Shown here one piece after another: positions 1,204 to 41,356 of a stretch of 64,000 bases of DNA. The stretch lies in NCBI GenBank assembly GCA_013368315.1, contig JAACJM010000341.1:1-64000 (forward strand), written 5' to 3'. The number at the start of each line of letters is the position of its first letter. Position 1 is the first letter of the stretch. The notes beneath the pieces are model-generated. The model saw only the letters and a program-made list of their open reading frames with translations, did no database searches and was not told the origin of the DNA. Both the position numbers and the translations under genes were made by a program. Origin of the DNA: Tetrapyrgos nigripes. Taxonomy: Eukaryota > Basidiomycota > Agaricomycetes > Agaricales > Campanellaceae.

Positions 1204-1993
1204 ATGTCTGATGCTGGCGAAAATGCTAGGACTGATGTCCGGGATACTGCCCCTACTCCACCATCATCTCCTCCATCTACCTCTACTTCGTCGGTCGCAT
1301 TATCTATGCCCGAAAAACACAAACCCCAACTACGTGATGCCGCTCAGCGACATCAACAAAAGCTTTTTGATTCCCTGACAGTTCTTACTGGCAGTGAGAA
1401 TTGGAAGATGTGGTACTTCCACATTAATAACGCTATACGGGTGATTCGTCACCAACACTTTAAAAGTTCCGGGTTACATCCTGGTAATACTGTCAAACTA
1501 GCCTGTTTTAACGCTATTACAGGCAAGATTGATGATAAAATCATGATCCACTACATCGAAGAGTTGGATGCGATAGAGCTTATCAACAAGCTCAAGCAAT
1601 GTTTTCGACCCTTCATCCACAGTTCAAGAGTCTAACGAGCTGTGGAAACTCTTCAACTTACGTAAACCAGTCTGGGAGTTTGATAAGCTCCTCGACGAAG
1701 CTCAGGATCTGTGGGCTTCTATCAAGAAGAGAGACATAGATGTCTCAGATCAAGTCTTTTACTCAGCTCTAGTGGGGATTATTCCTCCACACTATCACTT
1801 TGTTCGCAGTTCTTACGAAGCAACTGTGGACGCAGCTGCAGCTACATGGGATGCCACTACTGCAGCTGAAGGGGAGAAACCCGTATACAGAGCCGTTGAC
1901 CTCATTGCGCGGCTAAAGAAGGAATTCACTAACTATCGTTTTGAGCAATGCTCGAACATATCCTTCGAAGAAGTCCGACAAGAAGTCCGGTAG
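1204..1993 (+). pseudogene. gag: Copia gag, N-terminal part, frameshifted
   Basis: The capsid-like region begins at an ATG at 1204 and is open to 1635. The same protein then continues in the next frame from about 1622 (residues ...ESNELWKLFNLRKP...) to 1993, where it passes into the third frame that carries the zinc knuckle and pol. Residues such as GSENWKMWYFHI and the NKLKQCF stretch fit copia gag proteins. Two frame changes within 400 bp are more than programmed frameshifting would need, so I treat them as indel damage. A sequencing or assembly error at either site is an alternative. Confidence 0.8.
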
Positions 1994-4900
1994 CACTAGT
2001 CAAGGCGGCGCTCAACGATCGGACAAGTCAAAAGGGGAACGCGCTAACGCCGCAGCGCCATTCCAGAAGCCTTCTGATGTCAAAAAGGATCAGAAATGCT
2101 TCAACTGCAACAAGATGGGTCATACGACCCAGACGTGCCCAGAACCTTGGACTGAAAAGTCCAAAGAAGCTATGAAGAAGAAAGGGATTACTAAACAATC
2201 CAACAAAGGCAAGACTAAGGAGAATGCATCAGTTGCCATCTCCATGCCTACGTCTTCTTCTTCTCAAATTGCGACTACGTCAACTTCGCAATCGGACTGG
2301 GTACAGTCGATTTCTTCGGGCGACGTTGAGATGGAAGACTCAGAGACTCCGGTGAGTCATCATATTTCCCTACCTGCTTTTACCGCGATCTCTGACCAAG
2401 ATCATACGCATATCATTGATTCTGGTGCTACTATACACTGTACACCGTATCTTAACTTACTTTTTAACGTTCATACTACGCCTGCCATAACTTTAACTGT
2501 TGCCAATTCAGAGCATCTAGATCTTCGATTAGCAGGCGATATGCGGGTAGAAATTAGGAAGGACAATGGTGAGTCTTCATCGATCACTCTTAAAAATGTA
2601 TACTATAACTCAAAACTTCCGTTTACTTTAATCAGTATTTCACAAAAAGCGGACTATACTTTTACTTTTCATGATCATTTATGTACAATACGTAATGACA
2701 AGGACAATTTCATTGGCGTTATACACGAGAGCGCCAAACTTTACTCCATCACAACTAAAAAATTGAGTGATAACGTTGCTACTTTAAGTTTATACGAACT
2801 TCACAAACAAATTGGTCATATGAGTTATACAAATCTAAAAACATTACTAAAAACAGATAAATCTATTATTACAATCATTATTGATGATTGGACAGAAACT
2901 CAATGCGAAGACTGCATCATCAATAATATACACAGACTTTCTGTTCCGAAACAACGTACTTCAGAATTAGCAGAAAACTTCGGAGACCATTTTCATATTG
3001 ATATATTTGGTCCATTACGAACTGCCTCTATTGAAGGCTACAAATACTGGTTAACCATCGTCGACGACTGTACGCGTTGGTTAATATTATCTCCACTTAA
3101 AACAAAAGACGAAGCCTATACCCAATGGGTTACATTTACTACTGAACTATTTACGCAATATGGTATCAAAGTTAAAATTCTACAATCAGACAACGATGCT
3201 GTATTTACTTCGGGTGCATTCAAAAACTACCTGAAAGCACAAGGTACAATTGCACGTTATACAGTTCATGACACGCCTCAGCAAAACGGAGTTGCTGAAA
3301 ACATACATCAACATATCATGAATGGTATTCGTGTTAATCTGCATACTGGAAAACTACCTAATCGTTTATGGTGGCATGCAGGACTTTATACTATGTACAT
3401 ACTTAATAGATCTCCGAAAACTGCATTAAAAATGCAAACTCCCTATTTTAAACGTTACGGTGTTAACGCAAACTTAGACAATCTACATAGCTTTGGTACA
3501 CCTTGCATTGTATATGACGAAGCAAGAACTAGTAAACTAACTCCTAAAGGAAAACGTGGAGTTTGGTTAGGCTTTGACGATCATTCAAAAGGCCATTATG
3601 TCTACTTTGGTACTAAAGTGAATGTAGAACGCAACTTGCAATTCTTAACGTCCAAATCGCAAGTTGAAGGGGAGTTACAAAACAAAAATTTACAAAACAA
3701 AAATCAAGAACCATTAGAAACTACAGAAGAAAATACAACTGAAACTCCAACTTCTCAGGAACACGAACCTGAACCAATGGATGTCGACGAAGACGAAACT
3801 AAACAACCTGATGGCCCAAGACGATCAAAAAGGATCCAAGAAGCCAGAGGTTTACTCTACGATGAAGTTGAACAAAACATTGCTTTCTTCTTAACAGAAT
3901 TCAATGTTTACTACGCTGATAACGTTGGCGATCCAATTTCATTCAAGGATGTACTCAATCATCCACAACGTAATGCATGGTTTGATTCCATGAAAGCTGA
4001 GATAGAATCTCTAGAAAGTCTAGGAACCTGGGAATACGTCAAACCTCCTGCTGATGCAAATATCATTGGTTCCAGATTTGTCTACAAAACTAAGTACGAA
4101 CTTGGCAAACAGACCAAATTGAAATCTAGACTAGTAGCACAAGGCTTTAGTCAACAAGAAGGCATTGATTACTACGCAAATGATATCTTTGCCCCTGTAG
4201 CACGCATGAGCAGTACACATTTTATACTTGCTCTTGCAGCTTCATTAGACTATGAAACTACTCAGATTGATATTAAATCTGCCTATCTTTACGGAAACGT
4301 TACTGACGAGGAAACATTATACCTTCGTCCACCTCCGGGTAATTTACTACCTAATTTACCTGAAGGCTACGTACTTAAACTCAGAAAGATTCTATATGGA
4401 TTGAAACAAGCTGGTCGTCGATGGTATGAAAAATTATGCAATATTCTCATAAAGTTACTAGGACTTAAGAAGTCTACTTACGATAATGCGGTATTCTACC
4501 GATATCATGAGAATAAACTCATTTTAATACTATCTTGTCACGTCGATGACATTACTTTATGTACTATCAACAAAGCTACTGCACAAGCTTTTGTTACTGC
4601 ACTTAGTGGATACGTCCAAGTCACTGACGGTGGAGAAATCCACTGGATTCTCGGTATGGAAATTCAACAAGATAGGAATAATCATACTATTAAACTCCGT
4701 CAGAAACATTACATTGAGAATATTCTCAAACGATACAATTTTGACCAATTACATACACGCCGTACACCTATGCTACCCGGGCAAAATCTTAGCCCTAGAC
4801 CTGGGAGCGAACCGCAACGGGACGCCGCTGCTATTAAACACTATATGTCACTAGTCAGTGGTTTATGATATGTCGCTGACTGTACTAGGCCAGACATTGC

Positions 4901-5939: not shown

Positions 5940-6015
5940 GTTTTTCAAGCTACTAGTCAAGCTACTAGTCAAGCTACTGTCAAGCTACTGTCAAGCTACC
6001 ATCAAGCTACCATTA
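5940..6015 (+). repeat. Minisatellite cluster 1 (11-bp unit around CAAGCTAC)
   Basis: About six copies of CAAGCTAC separated by TAGT, TGT or CAT. Confidence 0.9.
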
Positions 6016-6936
6016 GCAATTTCATATGGATAGTTCACTTTAATATACAATTCATTTGAGTACATTTTGTGCGTGTTTCTAGTACAAAGGTCAAACATTG
6101 TTTATGGTATTTTTGCTGGTAGGACGCGTCTGGACCATGTGCATCATCCCAATACAGTAAGTGATACAAAGCTGTTCACACGCCTGTAGACCTTCAGGAC
6201 TGTGGCTGAACGCTTGAATAAACTGATATAGCGAACTAGGAAATGATTGCATTCCGAACGTCTTCACAAAATCCCAGTCATGCATCTACGACACTTTCCA
6301 CCCTTGTCTCTCTTAACATTGTTGGTAGGCAGTACTTTAATATCATCGTCTGCTAAACTTATGTATGCATAGATTACAAACCTTGCCTGAACAAACTAGG
6401 GAACCTCAGAATGCTGGTAAGTTACAGCTGAATTGTCAAGCCTTGATAGATTGATTCAATATCATTTTCACTGAGGCAAAACTCAGACAGCGACTCGCTA
6501 GCTTCATTGATCCTCAACGAAAAAGCCACCTAATACTAGCCCCGAAATTCAGAGAGCTCCTTCCTCAGTTCTACCAGCACTCACTTCCAGTGCTCCCTTT
6601 CCTGGAATCATCCCCCAATGCCTTACGCTAACTATATGAATCCACCACAGAGGATATTTACGTGTAGTTTATGACTACTTTGAGTATGTTTTGTGTAGTT
6701 TCTAGCTTATAGTTGGATGATTTTTCAATGAAAGTAGTTTTGGTGCTCAGCCTACTCTGGCATGTGCAATTTCAATAATAGTAAGTGACATGTCAATTTT
6801 CACACGGCTGCAAACCTTCAGGATTGTGGCTGAACACTTGAACACTGGAAAGTACTTCTTCTCATCAACAAAAAATACTATTTCATGGTAAGTAGTATGA
6901 GCTAACTGAGTAGATATTATATACATACTTAGAGAA

Positions 6937-7110
6937 CTCAAGCTACAGTCAAGCTACAGTCAAGCTACAATCAAGCTATACTCAAGCTACACTCAAGCTT
7001 CTCAAGCTACAGTCAAGCTACAGTCAAGCTACACTCAAGCTATACTCAAGCTACACTCAAGCTACAGTCAAGCTATACTTAAGGTACCTCAAGCTACTCT
7101 CAAGCTTCCT
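6937..7110 (+). repeat. Minisatellite cluster 2 (11-bp unit around CAAGCTAC)
   Basis: About fourteen or more units, mainly CAAGCTACAGT and CAAGCTACACT, with a few truncated units (CAAGCTTCT). Confidence 0.9.
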
Positions 7111-7497: not shown

Positions 7498-7605
7498 GTC
7501 AAGCTACACTCAAGCTACTATCAAGCTACTATCAAGCTACCGTCAAGCTACACTCAAGCTACACTCAAGCTACTCAAGCTCAGGTAGCTTGAGTAGTAGC
7601 TTGAA
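7498..7605 (+). repeat. Minisatellite cluster 3, ending in an inverted unit
   Basis: The same unit as clusters 1 and 2. At 7583-7605 the orientation flips (GTAGCTTGAGTAGTAGCTTG), forming the right boundary of the putative element. Confidence 0.9.
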
Positions 7606-9137: not shown

Positions 9138-9312
9138 ATGGGAAGGAATACTTCTCCCCCTAAACATCAGCGGTCCCTTCCTTTGAACACCATAATGGAT
9201 CCTGGTACGATTCAGAATGAAACCGCTGATCAGATTGGTTACGATGCATACTTTTTGCTCATCAAGATCCAGAGCGTTAGTCTGGCGTATGGTTCGTACG
9301 ATGAAGAGGTAT
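9138..9312 (+). pseudogene. Multi-pass membrane protein gene, 5' part of exon 1 (cut by the 5.2-kb element)
   Basis: Open from ATG at 9138, with a second and perhaps better start at 9195 (MDPGTIQNETADQIGYDAYF). The text IGYDAYFLLIKIQSVSLAYG looks like the first membrane segment of a family expanded in Agaricomycetes with no known function. The frame runs to GTA T at 9309-9312. If the inserted element and one TAT copy are ignored, it continues without a break at 14507 and splices in phase to the next exon at 14634. That continuity is the main evidence that both parts are one gene. Product and function are unknown. Confidence 0.65.
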
Positions 9313-9891
9313 CACTGGAGGCAAATCCCTGTAAATCATCTGCCATACAGAGGTATTACAGAGAGAAGAATTTTCCAGAGCAATGCTGTAAGACTGCTGT
9401 AAGACAAGTTGTATTACAGAGACATTTCAGAGGGCAAATCGCTGTAGATCCGGTGCCCTACATAGGGATTACAGCAACCTTACACCAAGCCATTCAACAA
9501 GTATTCTGCCTCGGATTACAGAAGTATTACAGAAAGAAGAAATTTTCAGAGCAATGCTGTAAGACTGCTGTAAGACAAGTTGGATTACAGGAACATTTCA
9601 GAGTGACATGGTGTCACAGTAATACATTAGGTAATACAGCCAAGAAATACAGAAGTATTTCAGTGTGACAAAAAGTCACAGTATATCTTCCAGTAATTCA
9701 AGTCTGTATTACAAAGGATTTACAACATTCAGGTATACAGTAAATCTAGAGTGATGGCAAATGTTTTACAGGAGACTTACTGTGACATTTCAGTCACAGT
9801 AATATTGGGGTAAGTCAGCCAGGATTACTGAAACATTACAACAAAAAGGAGAAAATATATATGTAAAATTAAATGTATTGATGGAAAATAT
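9313..9891 (+). repeat. Left inverted arm of the giant element
   Basis: Inverse copy of 13864-14503. It lacks about 58 bp present in the right arm, bounded there by two AGAGGTATTACAG copies. That fits a deletion between direct repeats. Contains many ATTACAG motifs and paired words such as GTGACATGGTGTCAC. Confidence 0.92.
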
Positions 9892-10389
9892 GCACCATGG
9901 ACACAACTTGCGCGCACTCTGGACGCAACCTGCACGCACTCTGGACGCAACCTGCGCGCACTCTGGACACAACCTGTGCGCACTCTGGACACAACCTGCA
10001 TGCACTCGGGATGCAACCTGCGCGCACTCTGGACGCAACCTGCGTGCACTCAGGATGCAACTTGCACGCACTCTGGACACAACCTGGACACAACTTGGGC
10101 ACACTCTGGATGCAACCTGCGCGCACTCATGACGCAACCTGCGTGCACTCATGACGCAACCTGCGCGCACTCTGGACGCAACTTGTGTGCACCCTGGACG
10201 CAACCTGCACGCACTCTGGATGCAACCTGCATGCACTCTGGACGCAACTTGCGCGCACTCTGGACGCAACCTGCGCGCACTCTGGATGCAACTTGCACGC
10301 ACTCTGGACGCAATCTGCGCACACTCTGGACGCAACCTGCGCGCACTCGGGACGCACCATGGACGCAACCTGCACGCACTTTGGACGCA
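9892..10389 (-). repeat. 22-bp satellite block A
   Basis: Tandem units read CACTCTGGACGCAACC plus a variable hexamer such as TGCGCG. About 22 units by length. This orientation is opposite to block B. The repeat switches strand at about 10390. Confidence 0.95.
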
Positions 10390-12010
10390 AGAGTGCATGC
10401 AGGTTGCATCCAGAGTGCGCGCAGGTTGCGTCCAGAATGCGTGCAGGTTGCATCCAGAGTGCGTGCAGGTTGTGTCCAGAGTGGCGCGCAGGTTGCGTCC
10501 AGAGTGTGTGCAGGTTGCGTCCAGAGTGTGTGCAGGTTGCGTCCAGAGTGCGTGCAAGTTGCGTCCAGAGTGCGCGCAGGTTGCGTCCAGAGTGCGCGCA
10601 GGTTGCGTCCAGAGTGCGCGCAGGTTGCGTTCAGAGTGCGCGCAGGTTGCGTCCAGAGTGCGCGCAGGTTGCATCCAGAGTGCGCGCAGGTTGCATCCAG
10701 AGTGTGTGCAGGTTGTGTCCAGAGTGTGTGCAGGTTGCGTCCAGAGTGCGTGCAGGTTGCATCCAGAGTGTGCACAGGTTGCGTCCAGAGTGTGTGCAGG
10801 TTGCGTCCTGAGTGCGCGCAGGTTGCGTCCAGAGTGCGCACAGGTTGCATCCAGAGTGTGTGCAGGTTGCGTCCAGATTGCGCGCAGGTTGCGTCCGGAG
10901 TGCGCTGCATGCAGGTTGTGTCCAGAGTGCATCCAGAGTACGTGCAGGTTGCATCCAGAGTGTGTGCAGGTTGCGTCCATGGTGCGTGCAGAGTGTGCGC
11001 AGGTTGCGCGGTCCAGAGCATCCAGGGTGTGCGCAGGTTGTGTCCAGAGTGCGTCCAGAGTGTGTGCAGATTGTGGTTGCATCCAGAGTGCGTGCAAGTT
11101 GCGTCCAGAGTGCACACAGGTTGCGTCCAGAGTGTGGCAGGTTGCGTCCAGAGTGCGTGCAAGTTGCGTCCAGAGTGCGCACAGGTTGCGTCCAGAGTGT
11201 GTGCAGGTTGCGTCCAGAGTGTGTGCAGGTTGCGTCCAGAGTGCGTGCAGGTTGCGTCCAGAGTGTGTGCAGGTTGTGTCCAGAGTGTGTGCAGGTTGCC
11301 TCCAGAGTGCGCGCAGGTTGCGTCCAGGGTGTGCGCAGGTTGCGTCCAGAGTGTGTGCAGGTTGCGTCCGGAGTGCGCTGCGTGCAGGTTGCGTCCAGAG
11401 TGCGTGCAAGTTGCGTCCAGAGTGCGTGCAGGTTGTGTCCAGAGTGCATGCAGGTTGCATCCAGAGTGCGTGCAAGTTGCGTCCAGAGTGTGCGCAGGTT
11501 GTGTCCAGAGTGCGTGCAGGTTGCATCCAGAGTGTGTGCAGGTTGTGTCCAGAGTGTGTGCAGGTTGGGTCCAGAGTGCGTGCAGGTTGGGTCCAGAGTG
11601 TGCTCAAGTTGCGTCCATGGTGCGTGCAGGTTGTGTCCGTGGTGCACGCAGGTTGCGTCCACAGTGCGCGCAGGTGGTGTCCAGAGTGCGTGCAGGTTGC
11701 GTCCAGAGTGCGTGCAGGGTGCATCCAGAGTGCACGCAGATTGCGTTCAGAGTGCGCGCAGGTTGCGTCCAGAGTGCACGCAAGTTGCGTCCAGAGTGCG
11801 CACAAGTTGTGTCCAGAGTGCACGCAGGTTGCGTCCAAAGTGTGTCCATGGTGCATGCAGGTTGTGTGGTTGCATCCAGAGTGCGTGCAGGTTGCATCCA
11901 GGGTGCGTGCAGGTTGCATCCAGGGTGCGCGCAGGTTGTGTCCAGAGTGCGCGCAAGTTGCATCTGGACTGTGCGCAAGTTGCATCCAGAGTGCATGCAA
12001 GTTGCGTCGC
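10390..12010 (+). repeat. 22-bp satellite block B
   Basis: Units have the core GGTTGCGTCCAGAGTG followed by a hexamer varying among CGCGCA, CGTGCA, TGTGCA, CACGCA and CATGCA. About 74 units by length. Occasional partial units and CCATGG variants break the register. Confidence 0.95.
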
Positions 12011-12548
12011 AGGTTCGCACTCTGGATGCACTCTGGATGCACTCTGGACACAACCTTTGCACACTCTGGACGCACTCTAAACGCAACCTGTGTGCACTCA
12101 GGACGCAATCTGCACGCAATCTGGCCGCAACCTGCACGCACCCTGGACGCAACCTCTGCCCACTCTGGACGCAACCTGGACGCAACCTGTGTGCACTCAG
12201 GACGCAATCTGCACGCACTCTGGCCGCAACCTGCGCGCACCCTGGACGCAACCTCTGCCCACTCTGGACGCAACCTGGACACACTCTGGACGCACCCTGG
12301 ACGTAACCTGCATGCACTCTGGACGCAACCTGCGTGCACTCTGGATGCAACCTGCACGCACTCTGGACGCACTCTGGACACACCCTGCGCGCACCCTGGA
12401 CGCAACCTGCGTGCACTCTGGACGCAACTTGCACGCACTCTGGAAGCAACCTGCGCACACTCTGGACGCAACGTGCCCGCACTCTGGACGCAACCTGCAC
12501 GCACTCTGGACACAACTTGCACGCACTCTGGACGCAACTTGCACGCAC
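12011..12548 (-). repeat. 22-bp satellite block C
   Basis: Same unit in the orientation of block A, about 24 units. The switches lie near 12011 and 12548. Confidence 0.95.
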
Positions 12549-13830
12549 GCATCCAGAGTGTGTCCAGAGTGCACGCAGGTTGTGTCCAGAGTGCGTCCAG
12601 AGTGCACACAGGTTGCGTCCGGAGTGCACGCAGGTTGCATCTAGAGCGTCCAGAGTGCAAACAGGTTGCGTCCAGGGTGCGTGCAGGTTGTGTCCAGAGT
12701 GCGTCCAGAGTGCACACAGGTTGCATCCAGAGTGCGCGCAGGTTGCGTCCACAGTGCATGCAGGTTGCGTCCAGGGTGCGTCCAGAGTGCATCCAGGTTG
12801 CGTCCAGAGTGGGCAGAGGTTGCGTCCAGGGTGCGTGCAGATTGCGTCCTGAGTGCACACAGGTTGCGTTTAGAGTGCGTCCAGAGTGTGCAAAGGTTGC
12901 GTCCAGAGTGCATCCAGAGTGCATCCAGAGTGCGCGCAGGTTGTGTCCAGAGCAGAGTGCGCACAAGGTGCGTCCAGAGTGCGTCCATGGTGCATGCAGG
13001 TTGTGTGCTTGTGTCCAGAGTGCATGCAAGTTGCATCCAGAGTGCGTCCAGAGTGCACGCAGGTTGTGTTCAGAGCAGAGTGCGCACAAGTTGCGTCCAG
13101 AGTGCGCCCAGGTTGTGTCCAGAGTGCGTGCAGGTTGCGTCCAGAGTGCGTGCAGGTTGTGTCCAGATTGCGCACAGGTTGCGTCCAGAGTGCGTGCAGG
13201 TTGCATCCAGAGTGTGTCCATGGTGCGTGCAGGTTGTGTGGTTGTGTCCAGAGTGCACGCAGGTTGCGTCCAGAGTGCGTGCAGGTTGCGTCCAGAGTGC
13301 GTGCAGGTTGCGTCCAGAGTGCACGCAGGTTGTGTCCAGAGTGCGCGCAAGTTGTGTCCAGAGTGCGTCCATGGTGTGTGCAGGTTGTGTGGTTGTGTCC
13401 AGAGTTGGCGCAAGTTGTGTCCAGAGTGCGCGCAGGTTGCGTCCAGAGTGCGCGCAAGTTGCGTCCAGAGTGTGTGCAGGTTGCGTCCAGAGTGTGCGCA
13501 GGTTGCGTCCAGAGTGCACGCAGGTTGCGTCCAGAGTGCACACAGGTTGCGTCCAGAGTGCGCGCAGGTTGCCTCCAGCATGCGCGCAGGTTGCGTCCAG
13601 AGTGCGTGCAAGTTGCGTCCAGAGTGCACGCAGGTTGCCTCCAGAGTGCGTCCAGAGTGTGTCCAGCATGCATGCAGGTTGCGTCTGGAGTGTACACAAG
13701 TTGTGTCTGGAGTGCACGCAAGTTGTGTCCAGAGTGCATGCAAGTTGCATCCATGGTGCATGCAGGTTGCATCCACCGTGGTGTGCGCAAGTTGTGTCTG
13801 GGGGGGGTGCATCCAGAGTGTCTCCCAGCA
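12549..13830 (+). repeat. 22-bp satellite block D
   Basis: Same unit in the orientation of block B, about 58 units, ending in diverged copies before the right arm. Confidence 0.95.
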
Positions 13831-13863
13831 TCCAGTCCTCTTACTGTCACTTAAATGTGACAT

Positions 13864-14503
13864 TATATATTTTCCATCAATACATTTAATTTTTCAAATA
13901 TATTCTTTCCTTTTTGTTGTAATGTTTCAGTAATCCTGGCTGACTTACCCCAATATTACTGTGACTGAAATGTCACAGTAAGTCTCCTGTGAAACATTTG
14001 CCATCACTGTAGATTTACTGTATACTTGAATGATGTAAATCCTTTGTAATACAGACTTGAATTACTGGAAGATATACTGTGACTTTTTGTCACACTGAAA
14101 TGCTTCTGTATTTCTTGGCTGTATTACCTAATGTATTACTGTGACACCATGTCACTCTGAAATGTTCCTGTAATCCAACTTGTCTTACAGCAGTCTTACA
14201 GCATTGCTCCCAAAATTTCTTCTCTCTGTAATACTTCTGTAATCCAAGGCAGAATACTTGTTGAATGGCTTGCTGTAAGTTTGCTGTAATCCCTATGTAG
14301 GGCACCGGATCTACATCGATTTGGCCTCTGAAATGTCCCTGTAATACAACTTGTCTTACAGCAGTCTTACAGCATTGCTCTGGAAAATTCTTCTCTCTGT
14401 AATACCTCTGTAATACAAGGTGGATTACTTATTGAATGACTTGTTGTAAGGTCACTGTAATACCTCTGTATGGCAGATGATTTACAGGGATTTGCCTCCA
14501 GTG
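13864..14503 (-). repeat. Right inverted arm of the giant element
   Basis: Inverse copy of the left arm and slightly longer. Ends in the inverse of CACTGGAGGCAAATCC, followed by TAT. Confidence 0.92.
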
Positions 14504-14506
14504 TAT

Positions 14507-40324: not shown

Positions 40325-41356
40325 ATGACCCGCATGCAACACTCTAGTCCAAAGAAGAATAGACTCGTCAGTGCCATACAGGCTGGAAAATCCATCTCCC
40401 AAGCCACTGAAATCACTGAAATACCTTACAGAACAGCAAAGAAGATTTGGGACAGATTTCAGAAAACTGGCTCAACAAAAAACAGACAGTGTAGTGGACG
40501 ACCACCCAAAGTAACCAAGCGCATGCACCGGGAGGTTGTCAGACTGGCTGTAAAGGATAGGAAGATGCCATTTCAGGAGATTGGAAACCTTGTAGAACTG
40601 CACCTGAGCACAACGACTGTTGGAGAACACTTAGCCGAGGAAGATCTGCACAGAAGGGTTGCTAGGACAGTTCCTTTCCTCAAACCTGGTCAGAAGCAAA
40701 AGAGATTGGCTTGGGCAAGGGAACATGGGGGTCAGGACTGGGAGAAAGTGATTTGGTCAGATGAGTGCTACATGTATTTGGGTGACACAAAAGGGTGGGT
40801 CTGGATAACACGTCGTCCTGAAGAGGAATGGGACGAAGGCTGCTTAATTCCAAAATTCCAACAGTCCACCATCTGTGTCATGGTCTGGGGGTGCATTATG
40901 AAGGGGAAGAAGGGGCTGTTGGTGGTGCTGGAGTACCCAGGAGGGAAGGGAGGTGGTATGAATGCAAAAAGATATATAGAGCAGGTACTGGAAGGGAAAC
41001 TTGAGGAGTTCTATGAAGACATGAGGTCAGACAGGGATAGGGTAGTCTTCCAACAGGATGGTGCACTAAGTCACACTGCAAAATCCACGAAGAAATGGTT
41101 GCATGACCATGGCATTACTCTGTTCCCACACCCACCATCTTCCCCCGACATTAGTCCCATTGAATGTGTTTGGTGTGAGCTGAAAAGGCTTGTAAGGGCT
41201 AGGGAACATCCCCCTACATCGACTGAAGAGCTCATTGCAGCAGTGAAAGAGGCTTGGGATACAATAGTGGTCGAGGACATTGACAAGTATGTAAACAGGA
41301 TGGATGACATTGTTGATGCTGTCTTGAAGGCAAAGGGTGGTCACACAAAATATTGA
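40325..41356 (+). CDS. Tc1/mariner transposase, DD34E, 343 aa
   Basis: An intronless, unbroken frame of the usual family length. The N-terminus carries helix-turn-helix domains (LVSAIQAGKSISQATEITEI, TAKKIWDRFQKTGS) followed by the GRP linker (SGRPPKVTK). The catalytic triad is complete: D146 in VIWSDECYM, D245 in VVFQQDGALSHTA and E280 in SPDISPIECVW, with 34 residues between the second and third. It binds the element's inverted repeats and cuts and pastes it at TA sites. With intact ends and gene, this copy could be active. Confidence 0.93.
   Translation: MTRMQHSSPKKNRLVSAIQAGKSISQATEITEIPYRTAKKIWDRFQKTGSTKNRQCSGRPPKVTKRMHREVVRLAVKDRKMPFQEIGNLVELHLSTTTVGEHLAEEDLHRRVARTVPFLKPGQKQKRLAWAREHGGQDWEKVIWSDECYMYLGDTKGWVWITRRPEEEWDEGCLIPKFQQSTICVMVWGCIMKGKKGLLVVLEYPGGKGGGMNAKRYIEQVLEGKLEEFYEDMRSDRDRVVFQQDGALSHTAKSTKKWLHDHGITLFPHPPSSPDISPIECVWCELKRLVRAREHPPTSTEELIAAVKEAWDTIVVEDIDKYVNRMDDIVDAVLKAKGGHTKY

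What the first reader, a model, noticed from the sequence alone, without database searches (positions are those of the whole stretch)
9313..14503. A 5.19-kb CACTG-ended element whose core is a strand-switching 22-bp satellite
Seen directly: inverse ends CACTGGAGGCAAATCC, a TAT duplication on both sides, long inverted arms, and a 3.9-kb core of one 22-bp unit. CACTA-type transposons are known for CAC ends, 3-bp duplications and subterminal repeats. A non-autonomous member filled almost wholly with a satellite array is unusual and may be a way in which satellite DNA is seeded and spread. I know of no described element with this layout.
Basis: partly seen in the sequence, partly recalled or inferred. 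Interest (0 to 1): 0.87.

Follow-up and report, generated by a model that had tools for sequence, protein, structure and literature searches.

The report
Jumping DNA filled with satellite repeats
A fungal cut-and-paste transposon without an enzyme gene of its own is filled with an array of one 22-letter repeat, and dozens of such mobile satellites sit across this genome, a natural case for studying how satellite DNA spreads.

Summary
Window 9313-14503 is an intact element: perfect CACTGGAGGCAAATCC inverted ends, TAT on both sides, 97% inverted arms, and about 3.9 kb of a 22-bp unit that changes strand three times. It is not unique. The exact 14-bp end occurs 133 times in the 98.5-Mb genome; the ends form 51 inward-facing pairs, 46 of 51 with identical flanking triplets. 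Uninterrupted pre-insertion sequence was found for 5 of 8 sites searched. All 27 complete copies that I read carry the array; 3 of 27 show no strand switch. Of 100 listed places (of 218) of a 34-bp satellite probe, 100 lie in copies of this element, one of them decayed. Best reading: a non-autonomous CACTA/EnSpm family. No same-armed copy with its own transposase was found; a tnp2-bearing family here has ends that share the first 12 bases. The unit matches that terminus at 10 of 12 positions, so it may be an amplified end motif. Satellite arrays inside CACTA and foldback elements are known; a family this dominated by one array is a new variant.

The parts
9310..9312 (.). left copy of the 3-bp target duplication, TAT
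   Evidence: triplet identical in 46 of 51 pairs genome-wide
9313..9328 (+). left terminal inverted repeat CACTGGAGGCAAATCC
   Evidence: exact 14-bp core 133 times in the genome
9313..9891 (+). left arm, type A, with about 58 bp missing near the end; short motifs such as TTACAG/CTGTAA repeated
   Evidence: motif counts in the L040 arm
9892..10392 (-). satellite block 1 (units point like the left end)
10393..12009 (+). satellite block 2
12013..12551 (-). satellite block 3
12552..13823 (+). satellite block 4 (units point like the right end)
13824..14503 (-). right arm, type A
14488..14503 (-). right terminal inverted repeat
14504..14506 (.). right copy of the 3-bp target duplication, TAT

Best explanation
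This is one copy of a non-autonomous CACTA/EnSpm cut-and-paste family in a fungus. A tnp2-type transposase supplied by another element is inferred to recognise the CACTGGAGGCAA ends, cut the element out and insert it with a 3-bp duplication. No transposase gene lies between the arms; a 22-bp satellite array does. The array lengthens, shortens and flips between copies by repeat recombination or repair copying (inferred) and was seen only as a passenger of the transposon. The unit may have arisen from the element's own end motif (suggestive, not shown). Shown: end structure, copy number, target duplications, uninterrupted sites, array variation, satellite found only in the element in the sample listed. 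Inferred: which transposase acts, that it still acts, how the array grows, where the unit came from.
For: Exact end core 133 times, reversed control 0; 46 of 51 facing pairs with identical triplets against 3.5% expected per pair; uninterrupted sequence for 5 of 8 sites searched; array in 27 of 27 complete copies read; two other copies at the window locus with 98.6-99.7% identical flanks and element lengths 4970 and 4993 against 5191; 11 of 32 paired ends of a family starting CACTGGRGGCRAGCTCATGGG enclose a tnp2 match, 0.36 expected; CAC..GTG ends and 3-bp duplications are the EnSpm criteria used in PMC12730594 (passages).
Against: No same-armed copy with its own transposase: the tnp2 match in C34 is a nested element with other ends and the one in C22 lies in another family inserted in the arm. 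The link to that tnp2 family is 12 terminal bases, exact in only 24 of 100 listed ends; most tnp2-bearing pairs have variants with one or two changes in these bases. 5 of 51 pairs have differing triplets. Several long copies could not be read. The unit-to-terminus match is modest evidence.
Confidence: 0.88

Rival explanations
1. The array is a working part: a stack of extra transposase docking sites built from the element's own end, which makes copies with arrays better substrates, as the Tetris authors propose for Galileo and Tetris.
For: Unit and terminus match at 10 of 12; 35 of 20,000 shuffled units do as well; best of 676 12-mers of the arm. The array is present in 27 of 27 complete copies read. 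In type A copies units point like the nearest end on the left in 15 of 16 and on the right in 16 of 16. Proposal for Galileo and Tetris: PMC4079207.
Against: The resemblance was noticed before it was tested; with gapped local alignment it is weaker (11 to 73 of 2,000 shuffles as good). Type B copies have units pointing the other way beside the left arm (11 of 11), so polarity is not conserved. No binding data.
Confidence: 0.25
2. A 3-bp-duplicating superfamily other than CACTA/EnSpm (PlavakaB or PIF/Harbinger) moves it.
For: Plavaka transposases are common in this genome (163 matches); PlavakaB elements make 2- or 3-bp duplications and canonical Harbinger elements 3 bp (PMC12730594, passages).
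Against: The same passages give ends CATCA..TGATG for PlavakaB and TGT..ACA for PlavakaA, and CAC..GTG with 3 bp for EnSpm. tnp2-bearing elements here have nearly the same terminal bases.
Confidence: 0.06
3. An ordinary satellite locus repeated by segmental duplication or misassembly, with no transposition.
For: Some copies are same-locus duplicates (C336/C516/C74, C237/C380, C270/C472, C118/C278).
Against: Different triplets at different sites, identical on both sides in 46 of 51 pairs; unrelated flanks; uninterrupted sites.
Confidence: 0.01

Closest known systems
Tetris, foldback element of Drosophila virilis (PMC4079207; abstract and part 1 of 2 of the Discussion read)
   Same: Non-autonomous, long inverted repeats holding tandem repeats, array number differs between alleles, autonomous partner not found, authors propose that the repeat came from the terminal domain.
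   Different: About 220-bp unit, 8-10 bp duplications (authors suggest Mutator superfamily), only three structurally complete copies, and free satellite arrays grew out of it. Here: 22-bp unit, CACTG ends, 3 bp, at least 46 duplication-matched pairs, and no free arrays in the listed sample.
Jozin, CACTA element of Chenopodium (PMC8978399, section 10 and passages; PMC7320549, abstract)
   Same: CACTA element holding a satellite array (5,550 bp of a 171-bp unit).
   Different: Carries tnp2; the array is a one-sided addition near the 3' end in some copies, not a core shared by the family.
Atenspm / ENSAT1 of Arabidopsis (one table row in PMC9659126)
   Same: Satellite derived from an En/Spm-like element.
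   Different: Listed there as derived from the 5' UTR of an autonomous element; not read further.
miDNA4 MITE of Xenopus and central arrays of Helitrons (PMC12628747 and PMC9659126, passages)
   Same: Non-autonomous element carrying an internal satellite of variable copy number.
   Different: Tc1/mariner or Helitron, not CACTA.
Subterminal repeats of Spm/En and other CACTA elements (PMC8978399, passages; binding by an element protein is recalled, no call)
   Same: Closely spaced direct and inverted short repeats inside CACTA ends.
   Different: Several hundred bases there; here kilobases of one unit lie inside the arms.

Membership tests
CACTA/EnSpm | termini CAC..GTG | tested here: met
   CACTG..CAGTG, 133 exact end cores; criterion from PMC12730594, passages
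CACTA/EnSpm | 3-bp target site duplication | tested here: met
   46 of 51 pairs identical; uninterrupted sites
CACTA/EnSpm | subterminal short repeats in direct and inverted orientation | tested here: met
   a 171-bp tandem duplication in the arm; TTACAG 9 times and CTGTAA 5 times in the L040 arm, no shuffle control
CACTA/EnSpm | tnp2 (PF02992) transposase in an autonomous member with the same arms | tested here: inconclusive
   None found: 2 of 51 pairs enclose a PF02992 match (C34, C22), both in other inserted elements; long copies not read. A tnp2 family with nearly the same terminal bases exists.
CACTA/EnSpm | mobilised by a CACTA transposase | not testable with these tools
   needs a transposition or binding assay
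Foldback elements (as a structural type) | long inverted repeats that contain tandem repeats | tested here: met
   arms plus inverted arrays in 24 of 27 complete copies read; 3 of 27 have an array in one direction only
Plavaka | ends TGT..ACA or CATCA..TGATG | tested here: not met
   ends are CACTG..CAGTG; criterion from PMC12730594, passages

The most novel reading that the evidence does not exclude
The satellite is the working part: a kilobase-scale array of transposase docking sites copied from the element's own terminus, so that array growth is favoured at the level of the transposon. The family is then a self-propelled satellite: each jump founds a new satellite locus, and dispersal needs no exchange between chromosomes.
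Probability: 0.25. Interest if true: 0.8.

Novelty: new variant of a known kind. Interest (0 to 1): 0.6.

Why it matters
How short satellites reach many chromosomal places is an old question. Here one genome holds at least 46 duplication-matched pairs of ends of one transposon, and in the copies measured about two thirds of the length is a single satellite. With arrays from about 0.6 to 8.7 kb read in full, two arm types, same-locus array variants and uninterrupted sites, the rate, polarity and mechanism of array change become measurable, and the idea that internal repeats feed transposition becomes testable.

Tried and rejected
Autonomous partner in C34 (tnp2 frame, 15.4-kb pair): rejected, because the tnp2 lies in an element with its own ends and AGT duplications, inside the last bases of another nested element. 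KDZ match inside the C37 pair: similar-scoring matches lie on C70, C162 and C117, where no exact satellite-family end is listed, so I take it as nested; not read. Plavaka-like frame in L047 (C98), 23.3 bits, below the family cut-off: the copy also carries a nested sister element; not shown to belong to the element. C22 pair of 23 kb: triplets differ and a CACTGGAGGCAAGC element lies in the arm; not an autonomous copy, but it led to the tnp2 family. Long reading frames across the array (up to 2,899 codons in L065): stop codons occur in several frames on both strands of the arrays tested, so I read them as a property of a stop-poor unit; coding was not excluded by a formal test. Loci L051-L053 with related tnp2 genes: no 22-bp array, only isolated matches of 16-23 bases. 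Rfam on the window: 0 matches. Blocks of higher order in L065 with the repeat finder: output dominated by the basic unit, no conclusion.

Literature: the listings of 8 searches showed no fungal CACTA family with a satellite core; open-licence PMC papers only, and I read few of the listed papers.
Full report
WHAT IS THERE. The window comes from a 98.46-Mb, 587-contig genome (window = contig C336). Neighbouring frames are fungal in kind (Chs7 chaperone PF12271, AA9 enzyme PF03443) and KDZ and Plavaka transposases are abundant (173 and 163 matches, 0 of 14 control genomes); an agaricomycete is my inference. The element runs from 9313 to 14503 with TAT on both sides, perfect 16-bp inverted ends and 546 nt of arm at 97% complementarity. 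Between the arms lie four blocks of one 22-bp unit on alternating strands.

COPIES. A search with the left arm gave 70 matches, with 40 of 483 candidates scored. A 22-base end pattern with up to 2 mismatches occurs 120 times forward and 118 reverse, 0 and 0 for the reversed control. The exact 14-bp core occurs 133 times (39 + 74 + 20). Pairing inward-facing neighbours gives 51 pairs and 31 single ends. 46 of 51 pairs have identical flanking triplets; from the base make-up 3.5% per pair is expected. The 46 range from 1,531 to 17,259 bp, median about 3.9 kb. Of the five mismatches, two are C33 copies with nearly the same flanks, probably one event, and three are pairs of more than 11 kb that may be wrong pairings (in C22 a foreign element lies in the arm). 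The 46 are not all independent: C336, C516 and C74 share flanks, as do C237/C380, C270/C472 and C118/C278. Whether these are alleles or duplications is unknown.

PRE-INSERTION SITES. Joined flanks of eight elements were searched in one query (41 rows, 40 candidates scored). Rows across the junction appeared for four of eight: L040 (2 rows, 99% and 96%), L039 (10), L046 (3) and L059 (25); 35 of these 40 rows have equal length in query and target, as expected of a single copy of the triplet. L039, L046 and L059 therefore sit in repeated sequences. The other four sites (L033, L036, L041, L042) gave no such row in this capped list. For L033 one search shows one: both its flanks match one uninterrupted stretch of C34 (92.6% and 87.7%), the two matches overlapping by 4 bases, which covers the 3-bp duplication. 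That makes 5 of 8.

THE ARRAY IN THE COPIES READ. I read 27 complete copies: 16 with type A arms (window, L031-L043, the C34 pair, L046; L043 has a degenerate left end) and 11 with type B arms (L054-L063, L065). All 27 carry the array. They include same-locus copies. In 23 of the 27 measured together, 56,091 of 84,318 bp (67%) are satellite, 30% to 91% per element. The largest array read is that of C335: 9,512 bp, two 419-bp arms, 8,662 bp of satellite. In C80 exact probe matches span 13.5 kb inside a duplication-matched 14.5-kb pair; it was not read. Beside the arms of type A copies the units point like the nearest end on the left in 15 of 16 and on the right in 16 of 16. The type B arm is the first 418 bases of the type A arm (98.8%, L055 against L040) and the array next to it points the other way (left 11 of 11, right 8 of 11); 3 of 11 (L057, L058, L061) show no switch. 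In most type B copies both arms pass into the array at the same base with the same unit start, so one side was copied to the other; in L059 and L065 the switch lies within a few tens of bases of the right arm. Left and right arms of one element differ by 2.5% on average, arms of different elements by 3.2% (24 elements, first 400 columns, same-locus pairs left out of the second figure); 0 of 5,000 random left-right pairings were as close. C336, C516 and C74 have flanks 98.6-99.7% identical but element lengths 5,191, 4,970 and 4,993; C516 and C74 are 99.6% identical with 24 gap positions, while the longest match of the window element to them is 94%. The switch pattern is therefore not fixed, as expected of repeat recombination or repair copying inside an inverted array (inference).

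THE SATELLITE WAS SEEN ONLY IN THE ELEMENT. A 34-bp probe has 218 exact matches (reversed control 0); 100 are listed, from contigs C2 to C146. 86 lie inside paired ends, 13 inward of a single exact end, and 1 (C2) in a decayed copy whose arm is 93.9% identical over 537 bp. They come from 21 elements plus the decayed one. The other 118 were not listed.

THE UNIT. The consensus of 2,667 units from 65 array segments is AGAGTGCGCGCAGGTTGCGTCC. Its two 11-bp halves match at 7 of 11 (144 of 20,000 shuffles as good). On the other strand it contains CTCTGGACGCAA, 10 of 12 like the terminus CACTGGAGGCAA; 35 of 20,000 shuffled units do as well (42 for a variant unit), and no other of the 676 12-mers tested in the arm reaches 10. 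With gapped local alignment 11 to 73 of 2,000 shuffles are as good (all). The resemblance was noticed before it was tested, so this is mild evidence. CpG positions depart from consensus at 29%, others at 7.4%, which suggests decay of methylated CpG (inference).

WHAT MAY MOVE IT. 2 of 51 pairs enclose a PF02992 (tnp2) match out of 117 in the genome. The one in C34 (E 1.6e-18) belongs to a nested element with ends CACTGAGGAACC../..GGGCGCACAGTG and AGT duplications, in the last bases of a nested sister element with CACTGGGTGCAA ends and TAA duplications (the ends and triplets read by eye). The one in C22 lies between two ends of a second CACTA-like family, CACTGGAGGCAAGCTCATGGG, inserted in the arm. 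That pattern with up to 3 mismatches occurs 120 times (reversed control 1); of the 100 listed, 24 are exact and the rest differ in one or two bases, mostly within the first 12. 32 pairs form; 11 of 32 enclose a tnp2 match where 0.36 are expected, and 7 of 36 unpaired ends have one within 15 kb inward. Of the 11, C22 and C119 have exact ends on both sides and so share all 12 terminal bases with the satellite element. This family is the best candidate source of transposase, by inference only.

COMPARISON. PMC12730594 (passages) takes CAC..GTG ends with 3-bp duplications as consistent with EnSpm and gives other ends for Plavaka. Tetris (PMC4079207; abstract and part 1 of 2 of the Discussion) is the closest layout, and its authors also propose repeats born from the terminal domain. 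Jozin (PMC8978399, section 10) shows satellite arrays inside CACTA elements. So the kind is known; a CACTA family in which the copies read are mostly one satellite, on both strands and not seen elsewhere in the sample, is a new variant. The listings of eight searches showed no fungal case.

LIMITS. Current transposition, protein binding and the cause of array change are not shown. Calling it non-autonomous rests on the copies read.

Noticed in passing
L044:2818 to about 6905; L047:6765-8000: A sister element with ends CACTGGGTGCAA, inverted inner repeats and a simple-repeat core (TAA duplications in L044), nested in copies of the satellite element; its arm is about 75% like theirs over 140 bases.
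   Followed up: partly
L044:3712-3990: A 279-bp insert with ends CACTGGATGCAA / TTGCACCCAGTG inside the sister element, absent from the matching stretch of L047: a short MITE-like relative with an empty site.
   Followed up: no
C22:397123-409616 and similar pairs: tnp2-bearing CACTA-like family with CACTGGRGGCRAGCTCATGGG ends; 32 pairs listed, 11 of 32 with tnp2, also short pairs of 0.5-1.9 kb that look like its own non-autonomous copies.
   Followed up: partly
L042:1953-2827: An 875-bp non-satellite insert inside an array, with A+T-rich ends that look like inverted copies of each other.
   Followed up: no
window 5945-6010, 6936-7106, 7499-7573: Three short arrays of a different 11-bp unit (about TCAAGCTACAC) a few kilobases left of the element.
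   Followed up: no
L054 flanks (C262:89290-91420): This copy appears to be inserted in another repeated sequence (CTGGAATGCACCTAGAATGCATT-like units, read by eye): a satellite element inside a different repeat.
   Followed up: no
window 40325-41356: Open Tc1-like transposase frame (343 aa; PF01498, PF13358).
   Followed up: no
window 1941-4868: Open Copia-type polyprotein frame (RVT_2, integrase core).
   Followed up: no
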